In this document: piece by piece, positions 47,270-51,547 of the stretch
How the letters are laid out: each line of letters opens with the position of its first letter
How positions within the stretch are numbered: position 1 is the first letter of the stretch
Assembly (NCBI GenBank): GCA_023078685.1
Contig: JALGAS010000008.1
Span: 2,542,001 to 2,606,000 of the forward strand
From: Neopestalotiopsis rosae
Taxonomy: Eukaryota > Ascomycota > Sordariomycetes > Amphisphaeriales > Sporocadaceae
Direction of reading: 5' to 3'
DNA length: 64,000 bases
Program-made: the position numbers and the translations under genes
Notes under the pieces: generated by a model
Told to the model about the DNA's origin: nothing
Seen by the model: the letters and a program-made list of their open reading frames with translations, nothing else
Databases searched by the model: none

Positions 47270-50104
47270 TTACCTCGTGCTTCGTGGCATTTTCAACATG
47301 TTGCGAAATCGTCCCTTCACCGAGTCAGCGGAAGCTTGCTGCTCTGGTGCTGGTCTGACATCTGGCTTCTGCGATGCACTATCCTTGGAGTATGGCGGTT
47401 CGTCATCCGAATCCGTTGGATCGAGGTCTCTGAGGTTATACGCCGCCTCTCGAGCCAGCTTGTCTGGATAGGTTATGCCGCCGGCACTGCTTCCTCCCCT
47501 CCCGCCTGTACTTATCTTCTCAATACCTAAAGCAAACGGCTCCACCATGGCGGCTATGATGTCTTCATTCGTATCCTGATTGAGATCAAGGAATTTTCTA
47601 TACAGATTGGGGTGATGGCGCTTGAGCTCATCTTCAAGGTCTTTCTGATGTGATATTATTTCCTCGACACGTGCCTTTCTGCTTGCTGGTGCAAGGTTTG
47701 TCGGAGGAACGCGGTCCTCACTCTCGAGTAGTGTAAGCCAGTCGTTGTATTCCGCTTGATGATCATTCTGGTGGGAGATAATTAGCGAAAGCGGTGCCTG
47801 TCTGTTAAAGGGATACCTTACTGTTTTCTGGAGAGACCTCTCTTGCAAGCTCTCCAGATATTTCTTTGCATTCCCAGTCATCTTTTGACCCGTAATATAT
47901 TTGTCAAATGAATCGGAGAACTCGCGGTATGGACCTTTGAGTATAAAGGCTTGGCCCTGCCACCCTTCGGCCCTGAGCCTATTAATGAGTCCTCTTGCCG
48001 TTGGGCATTCCCAGTCGTACTCGATGCGCCGATCATAAAAGACCACGCATTCACAATTCGGGAAGTTGTTAAAGGTTTCACGACTCATTTCATCCCTGAG
48101 CGTCCTCTCAATCATTGGAAAGGTTGCTTTGAGAATGAAAGAAACAGGTGCTCTCAGGTTTATTGCCCCATGTACATGGGATTTATCATAGTCTGCCACG
48201 GAGCGGAGGTCTATGATAAGTATTTGTGCCAGAGGTACAATCTCTAGTAGGTTGTTGAGGTGTCCCGCTAAAATCATGCGAACTCCTTTTCTCGAAGACG
48301 CCTGGCGTTGATCAACGAGTGGAAGATTCACGAGCTTGTTGTGAACTTGCTGTTTGTCTCTACGGTGCGCAAACCACGCCTGTTGAAAGATCAGCACTTG
48401 ATCTCACGTCTGTATAGATGACAAGTTTTTACTTACGTGAATGTCACTCGTCTCGACTCCTAGAGTGGATGCTAGAAACTCGATGATTTCAGCATTTGGC
48501 GCCTCGTGTTCCTGGAAATAATCCTCTAGCCGTGTTTGCACATGCGGAGCGAGTTCACGACGCTTTTGTCGACTTTCGCCGGCAATGGGGAGATTCTTCT
48601 CTGAACTACGATTTTGGTTGCGTATCGGTTGGTTCGCAATATTGTCACCGGATTTATTCGTCATGGCGCCAAGCGTTGGAGCAGTCTGTCGTCGACCGAT
48701 TGATCGTGAAGGTGTTGGCGAGTGTGCATCGCTTTGTGACAACTGGACTGCTGTACTACTGGATCTTGCCGATTCTGTGTTGCTGGATGGGAGCAGCCCC
48801 GGGGCAGTAGAGGCTGGAGGGTTTGGCGCTCCTGGCTCAACGGAAGGCATGTGCCGAGAGACGGCGGCATCATCTGGTATGGCTGATTCGAATGTCCCTT
48901 TGTTCTGGGCCGCCAAATTGTTTGAACGAATAAAGGCGACAAAGTTACAGGCCATGTTGTCTGGCAGCAAGTTCCATACCATGACGGGCACGGATAAGAG
49001 CAGTAGGGTTGAGTGACTCTTGAACACGCCCTGTACTTTGACGTACTTGGCGATCGCCGGGAATGCGCCAAGCCAATTTTCCCATTCGTTGATATCCAGA
49101 TTCTGATTGTCCTCCAAGGCGAGAGATATCATGACATGCGGCGTGTCTTCATTAGGCTCCGAGTTGACCATTTCCTGAGTTATTCCGGATCTGCCCGTCG
49201 CCGCCTGAGGGAACTCCTCGTCTGCTGGTGGGGGAAGAGATGACGCGATTCTGTCATCTGAAGCTGACCGCGCAATCTCTATACTTGGCGCCCTGTGGTT
49301 TGAGGTCATCATGAAATGCACGGGAGTCGATCGAGTTTCGAAGTTTCTGCCGTTGAGCATGACTGGTCTCGGGTGCTTCAGACGGGCCAGAATCTCTGCG
49401 TGCAGCATAGCGGCTGAATATGTCTTGTATTTCCAGCTTTGCATGACCTCGAGCAGGGCACTAGTAAAAGAATATCTTCCGGGGTCAGGTGCAATGGCAT
49501 CCCAGCTACTTGCAGATATGGTTTCTGTGATACTGGTTCCATTGGGAAAGGTGGCACTGGCGGCTCCAGCACAGCAGTCCAAAAGGATGAGCACATCGGA
49601 TAGAGATCGCTCCAGAAGAGTTTGGATTGCAGACCATCTTGTAGACCATCAGTGGGTGTTCAAAAAGCTGAGATATTTAGTAAATACTTACTGAAGCCAT
49701 GGAGAGTCTGACTGTCGAGTTCTAGATGACAACTTTTAGCTTTGCTGAGAAGATATTTAAGGGAAGCAGATGCCTTACGCGCACCAAGTACTCTGTCTCG
49801 ACTCGTCTATCCTTGCGTGGCCGCCATAGTAGACAACGAACAGGGTATCATCAGACTCGTGCTCCTTGATCATCTGCCCGACCCTCATCATGAGCTCTAA
49901 GTGAGGGTTGTCCTCAGGGATGGAGAAGATGTCAGTCTCGAAGCTGTAGTCATCTCGAAAGCACCTCTCAAGATCTTGCAACTCGGGCAGCACAAACAGA
50001 TCGTCAGTGCGCCAGTGCAGCAGCAGAGCCTGCACTTTTTGATACCTCTGCGATCGTCCTCGGTTGGGAAAAGCGCGAGCCGCCGACTGGCCGACAACCG
50101 ACAT
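47270..50104 (-). CDS. Caspase-like peptidase / homeodomain / rhodanese fusion protein
   Basis: Minus strand, exons 50104-49779, 49721-49692, 49637-48437, 48379-47822 and 47767-47270. The last intron (47821-47768, 54 bp, GTAAGG...ACCAG with a CTAAT branch-like motif) is in frame, so it could also be retained. Predicted length is 870 aa, or 888 if retained. Residues 20-220 form a caspase-type (peptidase C14) domain, with catalytic His96 in VVYYGGHARID and the Cys pair in VLILLDCCAGA (140/141). A Ser/Pro/Thr-rich linker follows. Residues about 477-535 are a homeodomain: HVQTRLEDYFQEHEAPNAE, then after an intron AWFAHRRDKQQ, the WFxxRR recognition helix. Residues 565-680 are rhodanese-like (ILIIDLRSVADYDKSHVHGA, then CVVFYDRR); the expected catalytic cysteine of the loop is not there. 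The start at 50104 is the first ATG of the frame; an upstream exon cannot be excluded. The role is unknown; regulated proteolysis with DNA binding is conceivable but untested. Confidence 0.82.
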
Positions 50105-51547
50105 TAGCAACACGATTTTTTCACGTCATCCACTAATAACCGTAAACCTTCAAAATGTAAGAAAAAGCACCTACATCTTCGAGCGACTTGGCAAAGTCGC
50201 CTACATCTTTGACGTGATAGTTTACACGACTAGTATCATGAGTTGCTGCTGAAGGAGTCCTGTGGCTCCCGGTACTTGAGTATGAGCCGTACTAGTGGGT
50301 ATGTAAGCTGGGTTTCCACATATTGGACGTTTTATTAGTTGTACCTACGGTAGAGTCGCGGTCGTTGTCTCTCCTCGACCGGATAGTGACATAGCTGCTC
50401 TCTGCCATTTCTTATTTTTCTTTTTCGTGATGGAGGTTGTAAATGCGTCAAGTGCTGGTAGTAATGCGACGATGTCAAGCAAATAGATTTCGATTTTTTA
50501 TCGACCTTGAGCCAAATTGGAGGCAGTCACTGAGTTCATGTCGAAATGCCTTTCCGGCCCCTCACTCATTCCGCCGGCTCAAAAGCCATGGCACTGCGAC
50601 GCGAGAATAGCTATACAGACAGCAGAGACTTGCAAGGAAGAGGGAGCGACGACTGTAGATCCGGAATTCGCAAATCTGATGAAGATAATAACGAGGCCAA
50701 AGCAGACCAGGCAGCTGAGTTATTACTAAAAGGAAGAACGGGTGGGCTTGGGCTTGGGCTGAGCGGGTTGGGTGGGCTTTCGTGGGCTTCCATCCAGCCT
50801 TAAAGAAAAGGATCCCGCCGCTTCGGTCGCAGAATTGGGTTTAGCGGCCTTTGAGTCCGACAACCTTGTTCAGCTGTGGCCGTGATCTGTACGACCTGCA
50901 GGATTGACACTTTTGGCTGCAACATTCCTCTTATCCTGACCGAAATGATCAAGGAAAGACTGATTGGTCCGAATCAAATACACATGTCTCGAATACGGTG
51001 TTGACTCGTATTGTTTCGTAGCCCTGTGCTGTCATTTTATGACTGGCAACGGTCGGCTTGCATCCGAAAGATCGATTCCAGATATAGTTGCGCCCAGGCA
51101 CATGTATCGTACCCAGGTATACTCCACGCATCGACAAGCTACGGGTATACTTGTGATGCAACCGAACAATCATCAAGTACAATCACTACCGTTCTGCATT
51201 CGGTCAAGCATCTGCTGCTGCATGTCACGCTCTATTCGATTCGGATGTGCTGATGCCTAGAATTTCCAAAGCTTAAGACCGGAAGTGGCGCAGTGTACCA
51301 ATGTACGGTTTCATGGTACCTGCATATGATCTTGGAGTCGATCGCATTGGCAGTAACCTAAAATCATGACGGCTTTCCCAATGATTCCCTCTGTGGGCAG
51401 CCGTATTCTCGAGCTATTGTGATTTCTTCTATCTGGGCGAGGATATTGACAACACCAAAAGCATAAGGCTTCTCAATGTTACGAAAGTGAAGATGTGACT
51501 CAGACTCCCGGCCCTCAGGGCCCCCAAATGATGCAGCTGAGTTATCT
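50105..51547. other. Intergenic region with a G-run cluster
   Basis: It holds the promoter of the fusion gene and the 3' flank of the P450 (both minus strand). No coding gene is supported. A dense cluster of GGG runs lies at 50740-50776. The decameric string CCTACATCTT occurs twice at about 50170-50205, just upstream of the fusion gene's start. Confidence 0.5.
50740..50776 (+). repeat. G-quadruplex-prone GGGCTT repeat
   Basis: Seven GGG runs (50740, 50744, 50750, 50756, 50765, 50770, 50774) separated by 1-6 nt, most of them in a degenerate GGGCTT tandem array. It lies about 640 bp upstream of the fusion gene and about 770 bp beyond the P450 stop. Confidence 0.8.

What the first reader, a model, noticed from the sequence alone, without database searches (positions are those of the whole stretch)
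47270..50104. Caspase-type peptidase, homeodomain and rhodanese in one predicted protein
Seen: one uninterrupted exon (49637-48437) carries both the caspase Cys (LLDCCAGA) and the first two homeodomain helices. The next exon carries the recognition helix (AWFAHRRDKQQ) and then a rhodanese fold. So the joining is within exons and not a gene-model accident. Known: each domain is common separately, and fungal caspase-like proteins often pair with signalling or repeat domains. Inference: a protease that could release a DNA-binding, rhodanese-bearing fragment when activated, coupling a death- or stress-type signal to transcription. I know of no described protein of this plan, but cannot search.
Basis: partly seen in the sequence, partly recalled or inferred. 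Interest (0 to 1): 0.85.

Follow-up and report, generated by a model that had tools for sequence, protein, structure and literature searches.

The report
Fungal caspase fused to homeodomain, rhodanese
A fungal gene already studied as a 'homeobox transcription factor' also carries a well-conserved caspase-like protease half, next to a homeodomain that has mostly lost its key DNA-reading residue and a rhodanese domain without its usual catalytic cysteine, so it may be a protease-controlled regulator of development.

Summary
It is orthologous to Podospora PAH7 and Magnaporthe MoHOX4, already deleted as homeobox transcription factors; the rhodanese is in print, while the word caspase is absent from the five main texts searched. 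The caspase half is the best-conserved part: His149 121/121, Cys194 120/121, and acidic residues placed like a metacaspase S1 pocket (E94, D192, 120/121 each). The homeodomain has lost Asn51 in 112/121; the rhodanese loop carries Asp for Cys in 117/121. Gly-Arg in the linker after the caspase core is kept in 118/121 (21.8 expected); at the aligned column 0/28 relatives taken as homeodomain-free have Arg. Best reading: a metacaspase-like protease preferring Arg/Lys, probably self-cleaving at Arg321, controlling a C-terminal piece that acts more by protein contacts than by classic DNA reading.

The parts
47270..50408 (-). whole gene, 7 exons: 50408-50349, 50291-50175, 50086-49779, 49721-49692, 49637-48437, 48379-47822, 47767-47270; 923 aa
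   Evidence: canonical GT..AG introns, one frame, 8 differences over 923 aa to P0001, which comes from a 3,810-base contig and lacks the introns
49268..50246 (-). caspase-type peptidase module, residues 36-295 (spliced)
   Evidence: NCBIfam caspase_w_EACC1 E=1.1e-7 over residues 94-239; mean column consensus 0.861 in 121 proteins
49982..49984 (-). Glu94, proposed S1-pocket acid
   Evidence: E in 120/121 family members, D in 1, and in 28/28 relatives; aligned to Asp of the GCIND motif of an own-genome metacaspase in a weak alignment
49817..49819 (-). proposed catalytic His149 (YYGGHA)
   Evidence: 121/121 and 28/28
49571..49579 (-). Asp192-Cys193-Cys194; Cys194 proposed catalytic
   Evidence: 120/121 each, one gap; in relatives D192 28/28, C194 28/28, C193 23/28
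49190..49195 (-). Gly320-Arg321 in the variable linker, proposed self-cleavage site
   Evidence: GR in the linker of 118/121, 21.8 expected by shuffling; Arg at the aligned column in 0/28 relatives
48917..49141 (-). conserved caspase-associated domain without a name, residues 338-412
   Evidence: mean consensus 0.867, 31 of 75 columns invariant; W360 and P365 also 28/28 in relatives; no Pfam hit there
48338..48574 (-). homeodomain, residues 527-586, split by the intron 48436-48380 between HD positions 46 and 47
   Evidence: Pfam E=1.7e-9; PDB best POU2F3 E=4.6e-7
48365..48367 (-). His577 = homeodomain position 51
   Evidence: H 95, N 9, R 9, Q 5, L/Y/W 1 each of 121
47891..48283 (-). rhodanese-like domain without Cys at the usual loop position, residues 605-735
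   Evidence: Pfam E=5.4e-5; PDB best DUSP6 E=1.1e-4; Asp688 at the loop in 117/121

Best explanation
A conserved regulator of filamentous ascomycetes (the named hits that I recognise are Sordariomycetes, one label excepted). Its N-terminal half is an intact metacaspase-like Cys-His protease with an acidic S1 pocket, so it should cut after Arg or Lys, not Asp. When activated it probably cuts itself after Arg321 in the linker, parting the protease core from a C-terminal piece (associated domain, homeodomain, pseudo-rhodanese). That piece works mainly as a protein-contact module and tunes where fruiting bodies form and how large spores grow. Shown: the single gene, the domain order, conservation of dyad and acidic residues, loss of Asn51 and of the loop Cys, the Gly-Arg excess. 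From published deletions: the developmental role. Inferred: that the protease is active, its Arg/Lys preference, self-cleavage, and the contact role of the C-terminal piece.
For: Continuous 923-aa reading across all exons from a 3,810-base contig. H149 121/121, C194 120/121, E94 120/121, D192 120/121 (the window model and its near-copy P0001 both count); the same four residues 28/28 each in relatives. Caspase module and associated domain are the most conserved parts (0.861 and 0.867, against 0.735 for the rhodanese and 0.657 for the homeodomain). Gly-Arg in linker 118/121 against 21.8 expected, Arg at the aligned column 0/28 in relatives. Position 51 not Asn in 112/121; HD net charge mean -3.4, n=121, against +7 and +4 for the POU2F3 and Oct-1 stretches. 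In a tree of 53 caspase cores the 25 homeodomain-bearing rows are one side of one branch, support 100/100. Deletion phenotypes: perithecium distribution, conidium size.
Against: No activity or cleavage product came up in what I read. Structure could not be predicted. Only 3 of 45 members match Pfam Peptidase_C14 at E<=0.01; the NCBIfam match is far below that model's cut-off; the profile comparison with own-genome metacaspases is weak (probability 7%, E 0.005); neither the caspase part nor a 35-row profile found a caspase among solved structures. Gly-Arg may be conserved for another reason, and 3 of 121 members lack it. The comparison group is imperfect: the search that gave it took only proteins of about 208-663 aa, so longer relatives with other tails, or with a homeodomain outside this clade, could not appear; 9 of the 28 are metagenome or 'partial' entries, and 17 of the 28 were scanned for domains by me (no homeodomain in these 17). 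The tree carries warnings about long branches. Helix 3 keeps Trp48 and Arg52 in 121/121 and Arg53 in 113/121, 9 of 121 keep Asn51, and His51 could still contact DNA. Deleting MoHOX4 changes expression of several transcription-factor genes, which also fits a DNA-binding regulator. The homeodomain core without arm and tail (positions 5-52) is not clearly apart in charge: family mean -2.4 (range -6 to +2) against 0, 3 and 2 for three own-genome homeodomains and 0 and -1 for POU2F3 and Oct-1; three more rows with stops inside were set aside.
Confidence: 0.5

Rival explanations
1. A true sequence-specific homeodomain transcription factor, as published for MoHOX4 and PAH7; the caspase half is a structural or regulatory part.
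For: Homeodomain profile in 45/45 members scanned; W48 and R52 121/121; deletion of MoHOX4 alters expression of other TF genes; the four Podospora/Triangularia/Cercophora pah7-type entries listed (P0095, P0096, P0101, P0114) keep Asn51.
Against: Asn51 lost in 112/121, mean charge -3.4, arm Arg5 in 43/121, position 55 Gln in 98/121; the caspase half is more conserved than the homeodomain.
Confidence: 0.2
2. A pseudo-protease scaffold: caspase fold used for binding only.
For: No activity known to me; some relatives carry other C-terminal partners (RA in P0216, C2 in P0223 and P0229, DUF3295 in P0209), as scaffolds do.
Against: The His/Cys pair and both acidic residues are kept in 120-121 of 121 and in 28/28 relatives.
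Confidence: 0.2
3. One reading: a death- or stress-activated caspase that releases a DNA-binding fragment.
For: Candidate cut site before the homeodomain; MoHOX4 transcript up with cordycepin; Cshox4 deletion sensitive to carbendazim in germination.
Against: Deletion phenotypes in the passages read are chiefly developmental; DNA-reading residue mostly lost.
Confidence: 0.07
4. A MAP-kinase adaptor: the pseudo-rhodanese docks a MAP kinase as in MKPs.
For: Best PDB relative is the DUSP6 domain; 26% identity to the rhodanese of an own-genome tyrosine phosphatase.
Against: A pair of basic residues as in DUSP6 is not evident: position 656 is basic in 64/121, its neighbour 655 in about 6; the columns are only loosely aligned to DUSP6.
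Confidence: 0.1
5. Gene-model artefact joining two genes.
For: None found.
Against: Single open exon across caspase Cys and homeodomain; the 120 listed relatives are 832-1123 aa long; all 30 short hits to the homeodomain-rhodanese query come from metagenome sources (lgn, jgi, ena), none from an annotated genome.
Confidence: 0.01

Closest known systems
PAH7 (Podospora anserina), MoHOX4/MGG_06285 (Magnaporthe oryzae), NCU00100, CsHOX4, KDB17963 (Ustilaginoidea virens)
   Same: MGG_06285 (P0079) and three entries named pah7 (P0095, P0096, P0101) align over 85-93% of the protein at 50-52% identity; homeodomain plus rhodanese already noted in print
   Different: papers describe homeobox transcription factors; 'caspase' occurs 0 times in the five main texts searched for it. 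For NCU00100, CsHOX4 and KDB17963 I rely on the papers and did not compare sequences
Metacaspases (own-genome L001, L002)
   Same: His/Cys dyad and the Asp before the Cys line up
   Different: weak sequence relation; DCC instead of DSC; their other domains were not studied
Bacterial EACC1-associated caspases (NCBIfam NF047832; PMC7159879, passages read)
   Same: the only caspase profile of that library to match; 8 of 8 fungal proteins tested, E 1e-4 to 1e-12
   Different: far below that model's cut-off (140 bits); an EACC1 membrane partner was not looked for
MAP kinase phosphatase DUSP6 and a fungal tyrosine phosphatase with rhodanese (L013)
   Same: rhodanese family; loop Cys replaced by Asp in this protein family
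   Different: no phosphatase domain found here; basic docking pair not evident

Membership tests
Caspase/metacaspase superfamily (peptidase C14) | His and Cys catalytic dyad in the family motifs | tested here: met
   H149 121/121; C194 120/121 (one gap); relatives 28/28 each
Caspase/metacaspase superfamily (peptidase C14) | profile match | tested here: met
   NCBIfam caspase profile E=1.1e-7, below that subfamily's cut-off; Pfam C14 in 3/45 members and over cut-off in 10/17 scanned relatives; not in the window protein itself
Caspase/metacaspase superfamily (peptidase C14) | caspase-haemoglobinase fold | not testable with these tools
   structure prediction failed, then was switched off
Caspase/metacaspase superfamily (peptidase C14) | proteolytic activity | not testable with these tools
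   needs an assay
Homeodomain, DNA-binding | homeodomain profile | tested here: met
   Pfam E=1.7e-9; 45/45 members scanned
Homeodomain, DNA-binding | Asn51 that contacts adenine (recalled rule) | tested here: not met
   His in the window protein; Asn in 9/121
Rhodanese, catalytic | Cys at the start of the active-site loop (recalled rule) | tested here: not met
   Asp688 in 117/121, Ala 3, Gly 1. A Cys stands nine residues further on (697) in 66/121, Ala there in 49
PAH7/MoHOX4 orthologues | near full-length alignment with the same domains | tested here: met
MKP kinase-binding domain | basic kinase-interaction motif (recalled rule) | tested here: inconclusive
   basic residue at 656 in 64/121, pair not evident; loose alignment

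The most novel reading that the evidence does not exclude
MoHOX4/PAH7-type 'homeobox transcription factors' are really caspase-superfamily proteases: they self-cleave at a conserved Gly-Arg peculiar to the homeodomain-fused clade, and so release a regulator built from a homeodomain converted to protein binding and a dead phosphatase-type rhodanese. This would be a caspase wired in one chain to a developmental regulator, with no role in death.
Probability: 0.28. Interest if true: 0.85.

Novelty: new variant of a known kind. Interest (0 to 1): 0.62.

Why it matters
Genes knocked out since 2009 as plain homeobox transcription factors turn out to be half caspase-like. That gives existing deletion strains a new, directly testable mechanism (protease-dead and cut-site alleles), and offers a caspase relative with a developmental rather than a death role. 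It also warns that Pfam largely misses this group: 3 of 45 members were flagged.

Tried and rejected
Pfam alone for the caspase half: no hit in the window protein. Solved-structure search with the caspase part and with a 35-row profile: no caspase. PADLOC: no hit for P0001 and P0206, a caspase model for P0223. A 14-3-3/PKA-like R..[ST].P motif in the second linker: 52/121 against 25.5 expected, too weak. An SG[TS]T motif there, 108/121 against 3.5 expected, is striking but absent from the window protein. Asp97 as S1 acid: first thought likely, rejected because the alignment favours Glu94 and Asp97 is D in only 2 of 28 relatives. EACC1 identity of the associated domain: only considered; described EACC1 has a membrane helix. 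Searches in print, PMC library only: caspase+homeodomain+rhodanese+fungi 0 papers; caspase+homeobox+Sordariomycetes+architecture 2, judged unrelated by title and abstract start; caspase-like+fungal+metacaspase+domain architectures+NLR 2, listing only; homeodomain+caspase domain+ascomycete 0; peptidase C14/homeobox/rhodanese, any two, 57 papers of which 15 were listed. Supplementary files could not be read.

In the first linker test 19 of 121 rows were not parsed; one search repeated it on all 121. In the test on relatives, 17 of 28 linkers parsed, 6 with GR somewhere in them; the column count uses all 28. Rows for the tree (53) and for the 28 relatives were chosen by me from listed hits.

Full report
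GENE. The finding lies on the minus strand. Splice sites and the reading frame give seven exons, 50408-47270, 923 aa (introns 57, 88, 57, 54, 57 and 54 bases). I made the same slip at first; searches used a 941-aa model. The correction came from P0001, a database protein listed at 97% identity to that model, which differs at 8 of 923 positions from the corrected one; its longest contig is 3,810 bases. In the genome the same stretch has stops inside, so P0001 most likely comes from spliced RNA; the source type of that contig is not stated, so this is inference.

ONE PROTEIN. Exon 49637-48437 holds residues 172-572: catalytic Cys region, associated domain, linkers and homeodomain helices 1-2. 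The next exon holds the recognition helix and the rhodanese. The search with the whole protein gave 379 relatives, 120 of them listed, 832-1123 aa. Those with names are, as far as I recognise, Sordariomycetes, except one labelled Lasiodiplodia mahajangana (P0104), which may be a wrong label; the other 259 were not shown. Of 45 members scanned, 45 have homeodomain and rhodanese, 3 the Pfam caspase. A query of about residues 525-844 found 30 short proteins, all 30 from metagenome sources, none from an annotated genome; only proteins of about 176-560 aa could appear. So within that limit I saw no stand-alone homeodomain-rhodanese protein.

CASPASE HALF. NCBIfam's caspase profile matches at E=1.1e-7 and matches 8 of 8 fungal proteins tested, P0001 among them, always below that model's own cut-off. 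Relatives found with the caspase part share 39-47% identity over the core. Of 17 of these that I scanned, none showed a homeodomain and 10 pass the Pfam caspase cut-off; some carry other C-terminal partners: Ras-association (P0216), C2 (P0223, P0229), DUF3295 (P0209). That search took only proteins of about 208-663 aa, so it could not show longer ones. In a tree of 53 caspase cores, chosen by me, the 25 homeodomain-bearing rows are one side of one branch with support 100/100; the tree program warns of long branches. In 121 aligned proteins (the model and 120 hits) His149 is kept in 121, Cys194 in 120 with one gap, Glu94 and Asp192 in 120 each. In 28 relatives these four are 28/28, while Cys193 is 23/28, so Cys194 is the likely nucleophile; 9 of these 28 are metagenome or partial entries, whose lack of a homeodomain is not shown. 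Glu94 and Asp192 line up with acidic positions of the fungus's own metacaspase, in an alignment of low score. From recall, these positions form the acidic S1 pocket of metacaspases; if so, the protease would cut after Arg or Lys.

A CANDIDATE CUT SITE. The linker after the caspase core is poorly conserved (0.59), but Gly-Arg occurs in it in 118 of 121 (21.8 expected from shuffled linkers), at one alignment column in 113 (Gly) and 114 (Arg). In the 28 relatives the aligned column has Arg in none and Asp in 19. This fits a self-cleavage site peculiar to the fused clade. It could equally be a binding motif.

HOMEODOMAIN. The profile match is firm, and POU homeodomains are the best-scoring solved structures. 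But position 51, Asn in DNA-binding homeodomains by recalled rule, is His in 95, Asn in 9 and other in 17 of 121. As a control, the other homeodomain loci of this genome: of seven (L014-L019, L023) the third helix was readable in six, and six of six keep the Asn (WFQNR in L014, L015, L016, L019; WLANAR in L018; WFINAR in L023); L017 was not readable. Mean net charge of the family's 60-residue segment is -3.4 (-8 to +1), though positions 5-52 alone are less distinct. Coppin et al. noted a non-canonical His in PAH7 at their position 54, which I read as position 50 here (passages).

RHODANESE. The best solved-structure match is DUSP6; in the own genome a tyrosine phosphatase (L013, Pfam Y_phosphatase and Rhodanese) has a 26% identical rhodanese. 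The loop position holds Asp in 117/121; a Cys nine residues on occurs in 66/121 and is Ala in 49; a basic docking pair is not evident. A phosphatase origin of this domain is plausible, not shown.

KNOWN BIOLOGY. The orthologues PAH7 and MoHOX4 have been deleted: altered perithecium distribution as the only phenotype in Podospora (passages of PMC3360767), shorter and smaller conidia in Magnaporthe (passages of PMC2779367). For CsHOX4, called the MoHOX4 orthologue, larger conidia, slower growth and less germination under carbendazim (passages of PMC8406175). MoHOX4 deletion changes expression of some transcription-factor genes (passages of PMC3675110), and MoHOX4 is up with cordycepin (passage of PMC13108354). 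The rhodanese is noted in PMC5666362, PMC8406175 and PMC6596325 (passages). The word caspase occurs 0 times in the main texts of PMC3360767, PMC2779367, PMC5666362, PMC8406175 and PMC6596325 by the tool's count; I read passages, not whole texts.

VERDICT. The gene is known; its protease half and the loss of its DNA-reading residue were not found in print in the searches named. This is a new variant of a known kind: a member of a fungal caspase group whose members carry different tails, here a homeodomain-rhodanese tail. The mechanism is a proposal with clear tests.

Noticed in passing
window about 26534-26352, minus strand (G000:C16:2568352-2568534): A TALE homeobox gene (Homeobox_KN E=2.8e-16, WFINARR) lies about 21 kb from the caspase-homeodomain gene; Coppin et al. 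call pah5 (TALE) and pah7 tightly linked in Podospora, so the linkage may be old. The near-consecutive accessions KDB17963 and KDB17966 of two homeobox genes in U. virens hint at the same.
   Followed up: partly
L009 1312-3546 (+): An own-genome caspase-core relative (27% identity to residues 159-417) whose same frame continues into Cys/His-rich stretches resembling C2H2 zinc fingers, below Pfam cut-offs: possibly another caspase joined to a nucleic-acid-binding type tail.
   Followed up: partly
residues 413-526 (48916-48575) and the same linker in the family: SG[TS]T motif in the long linker in 108 of 121 proteins against 3.5 expected by shuffling, but absent from the window protein and 12 others; meaning unknown.
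   Followed up: no
window 49141-48917: Domain of about 75 residues after the caspase core, as conserved as the protease itself (0.867), with key residues also kept in the 28 relatives, without a Pfam name.
   Followed up: partly
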